NCBI RefSeq assembly: GCF_008000815.1
Contig: NZ_CP042806.1
Location: forward strand, 558,001 to 622,000
DNA length: 64,000 nucleotides
DNA from: Terriglobus albidus
GTDB lineage: Bacteria > Acidobacteriota > Terriglobia > Terriglobales > Acidobacteriaceae
Direction: 5' to 3'
In this document: positions 13,170 to 43,687 of the stretch, in pieces
How positions within the stretch are numbered: position 1 is the first letter of the stretch
Layout: every line of letters starts with the position of its first letter
Notes under the pieces: generated by a model
What the model was told of the DNA's origin: nothing
Database searches by the model: none
Seen by the model: only the letters and a program-made list of their open reading frames with translations
Made by a program: the position numbers and the translations under genes

Positions 13170-13964
13170 CTATCTCTGACACATCGGGCAATAGTGCGTT
13201 CCTCGTCCCGCTACCAGCAGACGCTTGATCGGCGTCTTGCACGTCCGGCAGGGTTCGCCGGTACGAAGATACACCCGGTGCTCCAGCTGGAAGAATCCCC
13301 GCATCCCGTCTGCGTCCACGTAGTCCGACACGGAAGATCCACCAAGCTTGATGGCATGCTGCAGTACTGCCTTTACCGCCTTGTGCAGCCGTTCCAGCTC
13401 TATCCGTGTCAGCCGCCCTGCCTGACGAGTCGGCCGAATGCCGGCGCGGTGCAGGCTTTCGTCGGCATAGATATTCCCCACGCCATGCAGCAGCTTCTGA
13501 TTCAGCAATGCACTTTTGATCGGCGTCTTGCGGCCTTTGAAGAGCCCTACAAACTCGTCCACGTCGATTTTCAATGGCTCTTTCCCTGGCCCGGTGTAGC
13601 CGCGCGTCACACTCATGCGGCCAAACCGCCGCGGATCGATGAAGCGAACCTCACGGCCCGATTTCAGGTGCAGGACGCCATGCGTGTGCGGCGGTAATGG
13701 AACATCGCCGCCATTCACCAGCAGCCTGCCGGTCATTCCCAGATGCACCAGGAACTGCGTTCCTCCGACGAGCTCGAAGACCACCGTCTTACCGATCCGG
13801 TGAACCTGCTCGATCTTCTTTCCCTTCAGAGTCTCCGCAATCTCTTCCGCCGGCGACTTCAGCGGCTCCGGCTTCTCTCCCAGCCACACGCTGATCACCG
13901 TGTCTCCAGAGACACGCTCATGTAGCCCATTGGCAACAGTTTCGACTTCAGGAAGCTCAGGCAC
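13170..13964 (-). CDS. mutM: Formamidopyrimidine-DNA glycosylase (Fpg/MutM)
   Basis: 264 residues. It excises 8-oxoguanine and formamidopyrimidines and nicks the abasic site. The start is placed at the GTG complementary to 13962-13964 so that the protein begins (M)PELPEVETVANGL. Pro2 is the catalytic nucleophile of the family, and upstream ATGs in the same frame would bury it. Glu3 and the Lys of the LHLGMTGRL/GKTVVF region are present. The helix-two-turn-helix segment (NQKLLHGVGNIYADESLHRA) and the C-terminal zinc finger (CRTCKTPIKRLLVAGRGTHY then CPMC) are intact. The length is typical. It is divergent from the MITE-split gene at 14069. Confidence 0.93.
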   Translation of the reverse strand: MPELPEVETVANGLHERVSGDTVISVWLGEKPEPLKSPAEEIAETLKGKKIEQVHRIGKTVVFELVGGTQFLVHLGMTGRLLVNGGDVPLPPHTHGVLHLKSGREVRFIDPRRFGRMSVTRGYTGPGKEPLKIDVDEFVGLFKGRKTPIKSALLNQKLLHGVGNIYADESLHRAGIRPTRQAGRLTRIELERLHKAVKAVLQHAIKLGGSSVSDYVDADGMRGFFQLEHRVYLRTGEPCRTCKTPIKRLLVAGRGTHYCPMCQR

Positions 13965-14068
13965 CCCCTGATTAGACAGCATTTTCCCCTGGCGTGGCAT
14001 CTCACGCTCACTGAACCGGAGAAGACCGGATCTGCCGGCGTCCTCCTGGTTCAAAAGGAGATAAAGCG

Positions 14069-14720
14069 ATGCGCAGACTCGCAACCCTAGGGCGTGTCAT
14101 CCAACTCCTGCCGTCAGCGTTGCGAGCGCAAATTTGTTCAGACGAGGCGGAGGCCGAAGGCTGTGGCGGGTCCACAGTCGAGGCCGACAACGAAGGATGG
14201 GCGAATTTGCGCCGCAACCCGGAGGGCCGGGGCAGATTTTCCCGATCTCTTCGTCACTCCTCGCTCCAGTAGACCAGCTACAGTTCTCTCCTCACTCCTC
14301 GATCTCGTAAAAATCTGCTCCCGGCGCTGACTGGCACGAGTTGGATGACACGCCCTAGTACTTTGCTCGGCGATGCTGGCCCCTGTGGCCGCACCGGCCT
14401 TCTCCCAGCAGTACGACCGCCACGGCCGCTTCTACAACGGAGTACGCCGCAGCTACTCCAACAACGGCTACGACGACCGCTATGACCGCCGCTACTATGA
14501 GCAGCGCAAAGATCACGGCATCGGGCCAGGAAAGGGTGCCCTGATCGGGGGCGCCGGAGGCGCTGCTCTCGGCGCAATCTTCGGCGGCGGTATGAAAGGG
14601 GCGCTCATCGGCGGAGCCGCCGGCGCGGGTGTCGGCGCCCTCGCAGGCAAAGCTGCCCAGGACAAACGCCGCAACGATCGTTCACGCGACTATCGCGATT
14701 ACCGCAACGGCTACCGGTAA
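14069..14720 (+). pseudogene. Glycine-zipper exported protein gene, split by a MITE
   Basis: AAGGAG (14055-14060) precedes ATG 14069, which reads MRRLATL and then runs into the MITE at 14090. Deleting the 268 bp between the duplicated TA dinucleotides restores one frame: MRRLATLVLCSAMLAPVAAP then AFSQQYDRHGRFYNG, a perfect signal peptide. Downstream the gene continues to 14720 with a Tyr/Arg-rich stretch and a glycine zipper (GALIGGAGGAALGAIFGGGM, then KGALIGGAAGAGVGALAGKA), typical of YMGG-like outer envelope proteins. The insert shifts the frame (268 = 3x89+1). Only a start at 14373 (MLAPVAAPAFSQ), without an n-region or ribosome-binding site, could still be used, so the product is probably lost or not exported. 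Confidence 0.8.
14090..14355. mobile_element. MITE copy 1 (TA target, about 30-bp terminal inverted repeats)
   Basis: A 266-bp element bounded by TA duplications (14088-14089 and 14356-14357). The ends GGGCGTGTCATCCAACTC and GAGTTGGATGACACGCCC are exact complements, and the match continues imperfectly to about 30 bp (TGCC...TCAGCG). Two internal inverted repeats (14119-14136 with 14202-14218; 14226-14240 with 14310-14325) and a small hairpin (14161-14177) give a three-armed fold. It has no transposase. The TA target suggests mobilisation by an IS630/Tc1-type transposase. The second copy is at 41547-41813. Confidence 0.85.
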
Positions 14721-40174: not shown

Positions 40175-41557
40175 TTAACTGGGTATCGCCGTCATTCCTT
40201 CGCGGTGTTGCGGCATGACGATCTCAATCTGCAGGCCGTGCGGTGAGATGTTCTCGGCACGTATCGTTCCGCCGTGAATCCGGACCACGCGTTCGGCGAT
40301 CGCCAGACCGAGCCCTGCCCCGCCGGATTGCCTGTCACGGGCGTCTTTCACCCGATAGAACGGCTCGAAGATACGGACCAATTCGGCTTCCGGAACTCCC
40401 GGCCCATGGTCGCGGACCGTCAGCTGCATAAATGATCCATCGCATGTGAGGGATACCTCGACAGACGTGCCAGGCTCGGAGTAGCGGATTGCATTACGGA
40501 CGACATTCTCGACTGCGCTCTGCAACAGCTCCGTGTTGCCATGCAGGAAACATGGCTGCTCAGCGACGATTCGGACACCGCCGGATAGTTCGCGTGATTC
40601 GAACTCGGCATTGCGGACCACCTGCGAGACAAGTGCAGTGACATCGACCTCAGTCATCCGAACCTGGGGTGCCGACATATCCAGCTTCGCAATTGTCAGC
40701 AGCCGGCCGATCATTTCGTCGAGGATGCCCAGATCTTCTTCCATGTGATCGAAGGCAGGGTCACTGCCTTTTCTTTCGCGGCCAAGGTCAAGTGCGACAT
40801 TCAGGCGCGCCAGTGGTGAGCGCAGCTCATGTGACACATCCGAGATAAGCTGACGCTGCCGTGAGATCAGCTCTTCGATTCGAGCCGCCATGGAATTGAA
40901 GTCGCGTACCAGGTCTCCAAGCTCGTCTTTCCTGCGGCCTATCGTGGATGTGGCGCGAGTACTCAGATTGCCGCTTGCGAGCTGTTGCGATGCCTCGCGT
41001 AGCCGGAGAATCGGAGTCGTCAGATATCGAGTCAGCAGATAGCAGATAAAGCCCGAGACTAAAAGAGCGACTCCCCATTGCAGTACAGCCGCTCCCCGAT
41101 GAATACCGAGAGCCGCCCGGGGACCCGCAGGAAGTTCGGTCGCAAAGATGTAGTCACGGCCGCTAGGTCCTTTTACCGCCAGCGCAACCCGGGTGATGCC
41201 GTACTTCATATTGAAATCGGAGGTCTTCAACGCGGAAACGCGCGTCGTCATCTGATGGAAGGACTCGCAATCGTTTCCCGCGATTGCGTTGCCGTTTGTG
41301 TCAGCGAGACATGCCTTTAGATGTGTCTCCTGCGCGATCCGGTCGATGTACGCCGACGCAGAAGGTGTGCCGCCCTGCTCGTGCATCGCTGCGGCAATCA
41401 TTCCGGAGTACTGCGCCGTATCTGTTAAGGTGGCATGCCACTGTGAAGGAACACCGCGTGGCTCAACAATGAACGTGATGACCACCGCGATGGCGGTGGC
41501 AATGACGGTTAGCCAGAAACACAGAAAGATTTTGAGAAAAAGGTTAGGGTGTGTCAT
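40175..41557 (-). CDS. Cpx-type sensor histidine kinase, start codon supplied by a MITE
   Basis: 460 residues. TM1 (about 8-30), a periplasmic domain of about 125 residues, TM2 (about 157-177), HAMP (178-231), HisKA with SHELRSPLARLN (His 243), then the ATPase domain (N box NVVRNAIRYS, G1 DHGPGVPEAELVRIF, G2 GAGLGLAIAERVV). It autophosphorylates and passes phosphate to the regulator at 41823. The start MTHPNLFLKIF uses ATG 41555-41557, which lies inside the terminal repeat of MITE copy 2. The native start was ATG 41818-41820 (MPNLFLKIF), one codon before the insertion. AGGAG lies 4 nt before the new ATG. Confidence 0.9.
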   Translation of the reverse strand: MTHPNLFLKIFLCFWLTVIATAIAVVITFIVEPRGVPSQWHATLTDTAQYSGMIAAAMHEQGGTPSASAYIDRIAQETHLKACLADTNGNAIAGNDCESFHQMTTRVSALKTSDFNMKYGITRVALAVKGPSGRDYIFATELPAGPRAALGIHRGAAVLQWGVALLVSGFICYLLTRYLTTPILRLREASQQLASGNLSTRATSTIGRRKDELGDLVRDFNSMAARIEELISRQRQLISDVSHELRSPLARLNVALDLGRERKGSDPAFDHMEEDLGILDEMIGRLLTIAKLDMSAPQVRMTEVDVTALVSQVVRNAEFESRELSGGVRIVAEQPCFLHGNTELLQSAVENVVRNAIRYSEPGTSVEVSLTCDGSFMQLTVRDHGPGVPEAELVRIFEPFYRVKDARDRQSGGAGLGLAIAERVVRIHGGTIRAENISPHGLQIEIVMPQHREGMTAIPS

Positions 41558-41813
41558 CAAACTCCTGCCGTCAGCGTTGCGAGCGCAAATTGGTCCAGAC
41601 GAGGCGGAGGCTGAAGGCTGTGGCGGGTCCACAGTCGAGGCCGACAACGAAGTATGGGCGAATTTGCGCTCGCAACCCGGAGGGCCGGGGCAGATTTTCC
41701 CGATCTCTTCGTCACTCGTCGTTCCAGTAGGCCAGCTACAGTTCGCTCCTCACTCCTCGATCTCGTAAAAATCTGCTCCCGGCGCTGACTGGCACGAATT
41801 TGATGACACACCC
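41547..41813. mobile_element. MITE copy 2, between response regulator and kinase
   Basis: 267 bp flanked by TA (41545-41546 and 41814-41815). It is the same element as 14090-14355, with terminal repeats GGGTGTGTCATCAAACTC and GAATTTGATGACACACCC (one mismatch). Several end positions differ from copy 1 in compensating pairs on the two arms. The left end read outward carries AGGAGTTTGATG, in frame with the kinase. Confidence 0.88.
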
Positions 41814-41822
41814 TAGGCATGG

Positions 41823-42518
41823 TCAACCTTCTTTTGCCTCTCCGCGCGATACAAAGAGGTAGCCGCTACCTCTGACAGCCTTGATCCGCTGGTTGTTCTG
41901 CGCCGCCCCGAGCTTTTTACGAAGGTTGCTGACATGGACATCGATGACGCGATCGAAGGGGCCGAGTTTCCTGCCGAGTACAGCTTCTGTGAGCTGGTCC
42001 CGAGAGAGGATCTGGCCTGCGCCGCGAACGAATACCTCAAGCAACGTGAACTCTACACTGGTCAGATTGAGAGGCAGGTCATCCAGCCATGCTTCACGGA
42101 TTGCTGGGTCCAGACGGATATCTCCTACAACCAATGGACCCGATGGCGTTGGAGTTCTCGCGGTTCGGCGCAGGATTGCGCGAATGCGGGCGATAAGTTC
42201 CCGTGGGTTAAAAGGTTTGGGGACATAGTCGTCCGCACCGATCTCCAGCCCCTGTATCCGATCGGAGTCTTCACCGCGCGCGGTGAGCAGCAGTACCGGA
42301 ACAGTCGACAACTTTCGCAGCCGGCGCAGTACATCAAGACCGCCCATGCCGGGCAGCATGACGTCAAGAACGACGAGTGCGTGTTCCTTCGCAAGAGCTC
42401 GCTCCAGGCCGCGCGGTCCGTCATGGACACTTTCGATCGTGAAGCCTTCCGTGCCTAAACGCTCGGCCAGAAGGCTGCACAATTGAACGTCATCATCGAC
42501 GATGAGAACTCGATCCAT
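41823..42518 (-). CDS. OmpR/CpxR-type response regulator
   Basis: 231 residues. The receiver domain has the acidic pocket (VLIVDDDVQ), phosphoacceptor Asp 52 (LVVLDVMLPGMGG), Thr (VLLLTARG) and Lys (YVPKPFNP). The C-terminal winged helix (LNLTSVEFTLLEVFVRGAGQ, VLGRKLGPFDRVIDVHVSNL, RIKAVRGSGYLF) is of the OmpR/PhoB type. Before the MITE insertion the kinase ATG was 2 bp past its stop (TGACCATG), so the two were tightly coupled. Now the kinase start is about 265 bp away. The divergent 42698 and 43196 genes may be its targets. Confidence 0.93.
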   Translation of the reverse strand: MDRVLIVDDDVQLCSLLAERLGTEGFTIESVHDGPRGLERALAKEHALVVLDVMLPGMGGLDVLRRLRKLSTVPVLLLTARGEDSDRIQGLEIGADDYVPKPFNPRELIARIRAILRRTARTPTPSGPLVVGDIRLDPAIREAWLDDLPLNLTSVEFTLLEVFVRGAGQILSRDQLTEAVLGRKLGPFDRVIDVHVSNLRKKLGAAQNNQRIKAVRGSGYLFVSRGEAKEG

Positions 42519-42697
42519 TCTCCAACGCCAACTGCCTCCAGCTTGATGCTAGACCATAACATCGCAGCCCCCGGCCTGTCTTTACACAACTTTACTTTGC
42601 TTTACCAACCTTTATCGCACTGACCTCGACCTGTTGCTGAAATCGAATTGCGGCAAGGAAAGCACATCACACTCTCGCCGCTGAATCGAGGAAACCG

Positions 42698-43120
42698 ATG
42701 AAGCGTCTCGTATCTATCGCGTGTCAGTCGCTGCTTGCGCTGTTGCTTGGCAGCGTCGCAACAACCACCCTGGAAGCACAGTATGATCCCGGAGTCACGG
42801 TCCGCATTCCGTTCGCATTCACCGCCGGCGGTCAAAACATGGAAGCCGGAGTCTATGTCATCGAACAAAGCTCCGAAAGGTACGTGTTGTCATTTGTGGA
42901 TGTGAAGACCGGACAGCGCAGGCTGCTGGCAATGAATCCCGGACGACAACAGACCGGCGAACAGCATGGACAACTCATCTTTCTCGACTGCGGCGGCCGC
43001 AGTGTTCTAAGTGAAGTGCACATTCCGGGAAGCGACATGTCCAGTAAGCTTCGTGACCTCATGCATTCTGACGCGAAGAGCTGTTCTGCCAGTACTAGAA
43101 CATCGATCGCGATGCGTTGA
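42698..43120 (+). CDS. Exported protein of a family common in Acidobacteria
   Basis: 140 residues with a signal peptide (MKRLVSIACQSLLALLLGSV, TTTLEA). The mature part reads VTVRIPFAFTAGGQNMEAGV then YVIEQSSERYVLSFVDVKTG, a pattern I associate with small acidobacterial exported proteins of unknown function. One Cys pair is possible (LDCGG and SCSAS). It is divergent from the response regulator across about 180 bp and near a CpxP-like gene, which suggests control by that two-component system. Confidence 0.75.
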   Translation: MKRLVSIACQSLLALLLGSVATTTLEAQYDPGVTVRIPFAFTAGGQNMEAGVYVIEQSSERYVLSFVDVKTGQRRLLAMNPGRQQTGEQHGQLIFLDCGGRSVLSEVHIPGSDMSSKLRDLMHSDAKSCSASTRTSIAMR

Positions 43121-43195
43121 TTGAATATCGACGAATTGCCGCATGGGAGCCGTCATGACGGCATTTGAAATTGAAACCAAAAAGGAGTGTTTCGT

Positions 43196-43687
43196 ATGAA
43201 ACGGATTGTTGTTTGGTCGGGCTTGGTATTCCTGGTCTTGCTGGCGATCTTCGGCATTGCACGTGCCGATGGTTGGAGGCATCACGGATGGGGCGGAAGA
43301 GCGTGGGGTATGTATGGACCTGTGGGCTATATCAATCATGAGCTGCATTTGAGTGATGCCCAGAGGGCCCAGATTCACACCCTCTGGCAATCGGAGCGGC
43401 CGACCGTTTCGTCATTGATCAAAGAGCTGGTCTCAGAGGGCAAGGAGATGGACACAGCGACAACACGGGGTGCGGACGATAGTCAGATCAGGGAGATCGC
43501 CTCTCGTCAGGGGGCGACCATCACGAAGCTCCTGATAGAAAAGCAGCATTTCAAAGCCAGCGTATATTCGCAGGTTCTTACCCAGGAACAACGCGCCCGC
43601 GCGGCAGAACTTGAAAAAGAGTGGAGCTCGCATCTGGATCGTTTTGCCGACAGGATAGGCAGCAAAGACGACACGTTGCATTGGTAG
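43196..43687 (+). CDS. Spy/CpxP-like periplasmic protein
   Basis: 163 residues from ATG 43196, with AAAGGAG 8 nt upstream. A membrane or signal segment (VVWSGLVFLVLLAIFGIARA) is followed by a His/Gly/Trp-rich stretch (GWRHHGWGGRAWGMYGP) that could bind metal. Two LTxxQ-type motifs follow (LSDAQRAQIHTLWQS and LTQEQRARAAELEKEW) around a charged helix, the layout of Spy/CpxP chaperone-like envelope-stress proteins. With the two-component pair upstream on the other strand it makes a Cpx-like stress cluster. Confidence 0.82.
   Translation: MKRIVVWSGLVFLVLLAIFGIARADGWRHHGWGGRAWGMYGPVGYINHELHLSDAQRAQIHTLWQSERPTVSSLIKELVSEGKEMDTATTRGADDSQIREIASRQGATITKLLIEKQHFKASVYSQVLTQEQRARAAELEKEWSSHLDRFADRIGSKDDTLHW

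What the first reader, a model, noticed from the sequence alone, without database searches (positions are those of the whole stretch)
41545..41820. A MITE replaced the start codon of a sensor kinase with its own ribosome-binding site and ATG
Seen in sequence: without the insert the two-component junction reads TGACC-ATG-CC|TA|ACCTTTTTC, so the kinase began MPNLFLKIF 2 bp after the regulator stop. The MITE at 41547-41813 split codon 2. Its outer end reads AGGAG-TTTG-ATG-ACACACCC-TAACC, which supplies a Shine-Dalgarno and an ATG in the kinase frame and yields MTHPNLFLKIF. The insertion is thus rescued by the element itself, but coupling to the regulator (2 bp) is lost and about 265 bp of folded RNA now separates them. 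Inference: the terminal repeat may act as a mobile translation-start module, and the kinase/regulator ratio may have changed.
Basis: partly seen in the sequence, partly recalled or inferred. Interest (0 to 1): 0.82.

Follow-up and report, generated by a model that had tools for sequence, protein, structure and literature searches.

The report
Transposon end became kinase start codon
In a soil acidobacterium a small transposon landed inside the first codons of a stress-sensor gene, and the gene now appears to begin at a start signal carried in the transposon's own end, one that its RNA fold would hide unless a ribosome reads through the insert.

Summary
A 267-bp MITE (41547-41813, TA on both sides) sits between a CpxR-like regulator and a CpxA-like kinase. 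A sister genome (G015) has the predicted empty site, TTGACC-ATG-CCTAGCC (MPSLFLKIF). The MITE end supplies AGGAG-TTTG-ATG in the kinase frame (MTHPNLFLKIF), and branch counts show no loss of constraint.

Two corrections. (1) Coupling need not be lost. The old ATG now opens an 87-codon frame across the MITE that ends in TGATG, overlapping the new ATG. In the full transcript the new ribosome site is buried in the terminal-repeat stem (38 kcal/mol to open, against 10-13 for three starts without an element), so I favour a ribosome relay: read-through, then reinitiation. (2) A general 'mobile start module' is not shown statistically: of 140 ends in four genomes, coding-like frames follow in 18/12/10 of the three phases (p = 0.08). 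Single further cases exist: a PMT_2-family gene in G012, and possibly murJ in three species.

Outgroups suggest its extra ACACGC is an insertion matching the MITE end, possibly a scar. Precedent: MITEAba12, whose repeat gives neighbours MQQS. Nothing here was tested by experiment.

The parts
41823..42518 (-). Response regulator gene, OmpR/CpxR type, first gene of the pair
   Evidence: Pfam Response_reg and Trans_reg_C; best NCBIfam model CpxR, below its cut-off
41818..41820 (-). Ancestral kinase start ATG, 2 bp after the regulator stop; now the start of the relay ORF
   Evidence: homologous to the start in empty-site genome G015
41547..41813 (.). MITE, 267 bp, terminal inverted repeats GGGTGTGTCATC...GATGACACACCC
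41814..41815 (.). TA flank on the regulator side (target-site duplication)
   Evidence: single TA in empty site of G015
41545..41546 (.). TA flank on the kinase side (target-site duplication)
41557..41820 (-). Relay ORF: 87 codons from the old kinase ATG across the MITE, stop TGA overlapping the new ATG (TGATG)
41562..41566 (-). Shine-Dalgarno AGGAG in the MITE right end, 4 nt before the new ATG
   Evidence: anti-SD pairing -6.9 kcal/mol
41555..41557 (-). New kinase start codon ATG inside the MITE terminal repeat
40175..41557 (-). Sensor histidine kinase, 460 aa, CpxA-like, starting MTHPNLFLKIF
   Evidence: Pfam HAMP, HisKA, HATPase_c; best NCBIfam model CpxA, below its cut-off

Best explanation
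A MITE with TA flanks inserted into codon 2 of a CpxA-like kinase in this Terriglobus lineage. The kinase is now translated from the ATG inside the element's right terminal repeat, which puts Met-Thr-His in front of the old residue 2. In the full-length operon mRNA this ATG and its AGGAG are buried in the stem formed by the two terminal repeats. Ribosomes that leave the regulator and start at the old kinase ATG read 87 codons through the MITE, melt the stem, stop at the TGA that overlaps the new ATG (TGATG), and reinitiate there. So coupling to the regulator is kept as a two-step relay, probably at a lower kinase:regulator ratio. Shown from sequence: insertion, empty site, SD and ATG, relay frame, predicted fold, kept constraint. 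Inferred: use of the new ATG (about 85 %) and the relay as main route (about 55-60 %).
For: Empty site in G015; AGGAG-TTTG-ATG in frame, anti-SD -6.9 kcal/mol. The other in-frame starts inside the MITE are TTG at -90, GTG at -75 and TTG at -3; the first two have no SD visible by eye. The relay ORF of 87 codons ends 2 nt before the new ATG. Opening the new site costs 38.2 kcal/mol in the full transcript, 10.7-11.8 when the left arm is absent; starts without an element cost 9.7 (G015 kinase), 12.3 (G008 kinase) and 13.3 (G000 PMT_2 gene). With a ribosome over the left arm or over the end of the relay ORF the cost falls to 17.5-17.8. Kinase constraint unchanged in branch counts; pairwise dN/dS G000-G015 0.16. 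Similar arrangement in the PMT_2-family gene of G012.
Against: The relay frame is open in 11 of 37 family copies, so its presence here can be chance. With a ribosome in the middle of the relay ORF the site stays closed (34.0-38.2 kcal/mol). An SD 4 nt before ATG is shorter than the usual optimum (recalled). In-frame ends are not in significant excess. G008 starts MTRPNLF with no element. The structure is predicted for isolated RNA only. Pairwise dN/dS of G000-G015 (0.160) is above that of G015-G008 (0.096), although branch counts show no difference. No expression data.
Confidence: 0.6

Rival explanations
1. Independent initiation, the first reader's view: the AGGAG and ATG of the MITE end recruit ribosomes directly, without any relay, for example on transcripts that begin inside the element or before the stem closes.
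For: Decent SD; without the left arm the opening cost falls to 10.7-11.8 kcal/mol, as for starts without an element. Right ends have stronger SDs than left ends: 23 against 8 of 37 copies at or below -6 kcal/mol, random 15-mers 21 %.
Against: In the full transcript opening costs 38.2 kcal/mol. The consensus promoter scan of 41400-42000 found a single site; it is on this strand but starts at the new ATG, so downstream of the ribosome site.
Confidence: 0.27
2. The kinase is silenced: the insertion cut its translation and the gene is on its way to decay.
For: Buried ribosome site; pairwise dN/dS G000-G015 0.160 against 0.096 for G015-G008.
Against: Frame of 460 codons intact with HAMP, HisKA and HATPase_c; N and S changes on the G000 branch 9/21 against 9/31 on G015 (p = 0.58). 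A very recent insertion would leave no trace, so this cannot be excluded.
Confidence: 0.1
3. The kinase starts farther upstream inside the MITE (TTG at -90 or GTG at -75), giving a protein with an extra 25-30 residues.
For: The kinase frame is open for 64 codons upstream.
Against: No SD-like sequence before either codon (by eye); in most orthologues printed the likely start leaves only about three to seven residues before LFLKIF (starts read by eye).
Confidence: 0.03

Closest known systems
MITEAba12 of Acinetobacter (PMC6382973, passages read)
   Same: A MITE whose terminal repeat, read outward, supplies the start codon and first four residues (MQQS) of neighbouring genes on one plasmid and two chromosomes; the authors also point to start codons at its ends.
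   Different: 113 bp with outward promoters and weak folding (-24 to -27 kcal/mol); in the passages read no SD in the repeat, no empty site for the fused genes and no relay ORF is described.
Rickettsia palindromic elements and in-frame MITE fusions (review PMC10969869, passages read)
   Same: Small repeats that become part of host proteins.
   Different: They insert inside reading frames and are read through; here the host start is replaced.
BOX elements of pneumococcus (PMC3049150, passages read)
   Same: Repeat-encoded start codons whose ORFs run out of the element.
   Different: Those ORFs lacked good SD candidates and matched only hypothetical genes; here a conserved kinase with an SD.
IS630 / Tc1-mariner type MITEs (recalled)
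   Same: TA on both sides of this copy, inverted ends.
   Different: No transposase with these ends was found among the IS630-family hits of four genomes; 20 of 31 non-redundant sites lack TA on at least one side.

Membership tests
MITE (miniature inverted-repeat transposable element) | Short, no transposase gene, terminal inverted repeats | tested here: met
   267 bp, too short for a transposase; ends GGGTGTGTCATC / GATGACACACCC. Frames listed; no family search was run on the element's own frames.
MITE (miniature inverted-repeat transposable element) | Many dispersed copies and polymorphic presence between relatives | tested here: met
   Ten near full-length copies in G000; 6 of 61 genomes incl. 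self have a match, two of them (G026, G030) only partial; empty site in G015
MITE (miniature inverted-repeat transposable element) | Target-site duplication | tested here: inconclusive
   TA/TA here with a single TA in the empty site; across 31 non-redundant sites only 11 have TA on both sides
IS630 / Tc1-mariner related element | TA target, CTAG preference (recalled) | tested here: inconclusive
   CTAG in 4 of the 11 TA/TA sites
IS630 / Tc1-mariner related element | Autonomous partner with the same ends | tested here: not met
   28 matches of the IS630 transposase model in four genomes, three of them drafts; none has TAGGGYGTGTCATC within 2 mismatches in its locus of up to 1500 flanking bases a side. 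Other transposase families were not searched.
Element-donated translation start, as in MITEAba12 | Start codon in the terminal repeat in frame with a conserved host gene | tested here: met
Element-donated translation start, as in MITEAba12 | Outward promoter in the element | tested here: not met
   No consensus sigma-70 site upstream of the new start inside the element; other promoter types not covered
Termination-reinitiation coupled gene pair | Stop codon overlapping the next start | tested here: met
   TGATG at 41559-41555
Termination-reinitiation coupled gene pair | Downstream translation depends on upstream translation | not testable with these tools
   needs a reporter

The most novel reading that the evidence does not exclude
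The right end of this MITE family is a self-gated portable translation start. Its SD and ATG are locked in the terminal-repeat stem and released only by a ribosome crossing the element, or after the left arm is lost or captured. Hosts have kept it repeatedly: the kinase in G000; a PMT_2-family gene in G012 (and, with the old start also usable, G015), where the host's old start resembles the repeat and could capture the left arm, and opening costs only about 7 kcal/mol; a solo end of up to about 46 bp at murJ in three species; and a 6-bp scar at the kinase of Terriglobus albidus.
Probability: 0.3. Interest if true: 0.72.

Novelty: new variant of a known kind. Interest (0 to 1): 0.52.

Why it matters
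Mobile elements are known to bring promoters; bringing a complete ribosome site and start codon is little documented. If the relay is real, a MITE can turn simple overlap coupling of a sensor and its regulator into a tunable two-step coupling without breaking either protein, and it leaves a traceable tag (MTHP or MTRP) by which such events can be found in genomes. It also warns annotators that the N-terminus and expression ratio of a two-component pair can change by insertion.

Tried and rejected
Tried and rejected: (1) loss of coupling, because of the TGATG relay frame. (2) A statistical claim that ends prefer the in-frame phase: 18/12/10 coding-like frames of 140 ends, orthologous duplicates included (binomial p = 0.08 against one third, 0.18 against phase 1 alone); collapsed by eye to 14 of 35 loci, p = 0.25. 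The third phase is handicapped because a TA flank often makes a stop there. (3) Relaxed selection on the kinase: pairwise dN/dS hinted at it, direct branch counts did not. (4) An autonomous IS630-type parent: none found. (5) Known RNA family: no Rfam match at gathering score in 41300-42100. (6) Internal promoter: the only consensus site on this strand starts at the new ATG. (7) The 2.5-kb pair of ends at G000 4120087-4122579 as a transposon: it encloses ordinary-looking genes, LysR- and MFS-like by eye. (8) murJ as a clean start replacement: an ATG farther upstream is in frame with the remnant in all three species, and opening the MITE ATG of murJ in G000 costs 19.1 kcal/mol, so either codon may be used. 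(9) The PMT_2-family gene in G015: its old ATG is in frame through the shortened element, so only in G012 is the old start cut off.

Errors corrected: I printed the kinase relay out of register; searches give the right reading. In one search minus-strand loci were printed on the wrong strand; one search prints those of its list correctly.

Full report
What is there. On the minus strand the window carries a response regulator (41823-42518) followed by a sensor kinase (Pfam Response_reg and Trans_reg_C; HAMP, HisKA, HATPase_c). The best NCBIfam models are CpxR and CpxA, both below their cut-offs. A gene for a small LTXXQ-family protein, the kind of CpxP and Spy (recalled), lies divergently at 43187-43687. 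Between regulator and kinase sits a 267-bp element with inverted ends and TA on each side. It folds far better than its shuffles (z -9.2, 0 of 200). Ten near full-length copies, this one included, lie in this 6.4-Mb genome.

Relatives. Of 61 genomes searched (self included), 6 have a match: self, three in the same genus (G008, G012, G015), and partial matches in G026 and G030. The 14-base end, with up to one mismatch, occurs 34 times in G000, 29 in G008, 29 in G015 and 49 in G012; the 15 other genus members have 0 to 4, which is no more than the reversed control, 0 to 3 in all 19 genomes. The 22-base SD-plus-start end, with up to two mismatches, is in 10 of 396 family genomes; outside the genus the listed rows lack AGGAG, except one in G268.

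Empty site. In most of the orthologues printed, the likely start leaves about three to seven residues before LFLKIF (32 loci, 18; starts read by eye, some unclear). In several outgroups the kinase starts farther upstream with an ATGA overlap, so the pre-insertion start in this lineage may have been the ATG or the TTG overlapping the regulator stop.

The case against, G008. Its kinase has no element, yet starts ...GTGACC-ATG-ACACGC-CCTAACC (MTRPNLF). Outgroup L165 (68 % identical) has CTGACC-ATG-CCCAGT, and L109, L164 and L167 also have an ATG directly before that position, without the six bases. So ACACGC looks inserted in G008, and it is identical to the CGCCC variant of the MITE end. The simplest reading is a scar: an element at the same TA that lost everything up to its own ATG. 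Alternatives remain: a length-matched alignment to L110 and L111 would make the G008 length ancestral, the automatic alignment places a 21-base gap there rather than one of six, and six bases can agree by chance. G000 and G008 also share TAACC where G015 has TAGCC, although the kinase as a whole groups G000 with G015 (DNA identity 0.896 against 0.827 and 0.820). I put the scar at about 70 %.

Mechanism. The MITE end gives AGGAG-TTTG-ATG-ACACACCC-TAACC, in frame with the kinase; anti-SD energy -6.9 kcal/mol, like the old start's -6.8. In the full RNA the site is paired except for one base of the SD. Opening -12 to +15 costs 38.2 kcal/mol in the whole transcript, 10.7 to 11.8 if the transcript begins 20 to 120 nt upstream of the new ATG, and 9.7, 12.3 and 13.3 at three starts without an element. 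Folded alone, each of 37 copies hides its right-end start (mean unpaired at most 0.24; one copy, 895268, could not be oriented). But the old ATG now reads MPRVCHQIR...LTAGV, 87 codons, and its TGA overlaps the new ATG as TGATG. A ribosome placed over the left arm (30 nt in) or near the end of this frame (245 nt in) reduces the cost to 17.5-17.8; at five positions between, it stays at 34.0-38.2. Hence the relay model. The relay frame is open in 11 of 37 copies, so it is not by itself evidence of selection.

Is the kinase alive? Counting changes with G008 as outgroup gives 9 nonsynonymous and 21 synonymous on the G000 branch, 9 and 31 on G015 (p = 0.58); the regulator gives 3/19 and 1/17. Pairwise dN/dS is 0.160 for G000-G015, 0.135 for G000-G008 and 0.096 for G015-G008. 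There is no clear sign of decay, but a recent insertion would show none.

Is it general? Of 140 ends with at most one mismatch in four genomes, a coding-like frame follows in the ATG phase 18 times, in the other phases 12 and 10 times (p = 0.08, and 0.25 after collapsing orthologues by eye). This is no significant excess. Of 14 in-frame ORFs scanned (13 of the 14 collapsed loci, the kinase being, plus one weaker ORF), 11 have a Pfam domain: MurJ, PMT_2, ATP-dependent DNA ligase, DUF4432, alcohol dehydrogenase, ABC ATPase, dienelactone hydrolase, lumazine-binding, outer membrane efflux protein, sigma-70 factor, cupin; three have none. In several of them a native-looking start lies downstream, so the MITE start is at best an extra one (by eye).

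Two cases stand out. In G012 a PMT_2-family gene has the element between its old start and the rest; the old frame stops after 29 residues inside the element, and the gene starts MTHPKRRVLFW at the MITE ATG, where G000 and G008 have no element and read MTNPRRRVLFW and MTNPRGRVLFW. In G015 the same insertion is shortened and in frame with the old start. The host's old start there resembles the repeat; the MITE start opens for 6.8 (G012) and 7.4 kcal/mol (G015). I infer that the old start can pair with the left arm instead; the minimum-energy fold of G012 still pairs the two repeats. At murJ, G000, G012 and G015 share a solo right end (46 bp at 93 % in G000) ending GGCAGGAGTTTGATGACACGCCCTA, identical in all three over these 25 bases, while G008 and G017 lack it and appear to start MQ.... 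An ATG farther upstream is also in frame, and the MITE ATG there costs 19.1 kcal/mol to open in G000, so murJ is only a possible case.

Family membership. It is a MITE by size, ends, copies and polymorphism. TA duplication fits here, but of 31 non-redundant sites only 11 have TA on both sides, 4 of them in CTAG, and no IS630-type transposase with these ends was found. So IS630 kinship is a lead only.

What is known. MITEAba12 already gives neighbours a start and four residues from its repeat (PMC6382973, passages). MITE and RPE in-frame fusions are reviewed in PMC10969869 (passages); BOX-encoded starts without good SDs in PMC3049150 (passages); for Coxiella a passage, cut at its beginning, appears to say that no QMITE affects the 5' end of genes of known function (PMC5896051). 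Searches listed no title or abstract that describes this Terriglobus element or a MITE with an SD-plus-start hidden in its stem and a relay ORF. The lists of 46, 50, 51, 54 and 67 were capped (25 of 168, 15 of 60, 15 of 53, 10 of 42, 12 of 39), and only open-licence papers are held. I therefore call it a new variant of a known kind.

Noticed in passing
window 14088-14357: A second copy of the same MITE family lies in the window, just upstream of a formamidopyrimidine-DNA glycosylase-like gene (by eye, 13170-14084 minus); its ATG is not in that gene's frame.
   Followed up: partly
L302 and L303 upstream of the gene; L304 and L305 near position 1490-1515 in gene orientation: The native start of the PMT_2-family gene (TTTGATGACAAACCC in G000 and G008) nearly matches the MITE end that inserted there in G012 and G015; chance, or targeting by similarity, is open. 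The empty site has no TA at that place.
   Followed up: partly
L250 around 3272 (G008:C18:145272): The regulator of G008 has a different tail and runs into the first kinase codons (stop TAA), 241 aa instead of 231.
   Followed up: partly
G000:C1:1653827-1654752 and 6034641-6035566 (L321, L324, L327, L329): Two IS630-family transposase loci each match as two overlapping pieces, the N-terminal piece with one internal TGA; no MITE-like end lies near them.
   Followed up: no
filled sites listed, counted: The inner base of the flanking dinucleotide is A on the left and T on the right in 37 of 38 listed elements, while the outer base varies; 20 of 31 non-redundant sites lack TA on at least one side. 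A plain TA duplication does not explain this, though the search pattern itself favours TA.
   Followed up: partly
window 40175-43687: CpxAR-like pair with a divergent LTXXQ-family gene, suggesting an envelope-stress system in an acidobacterium.
   Followed up: no
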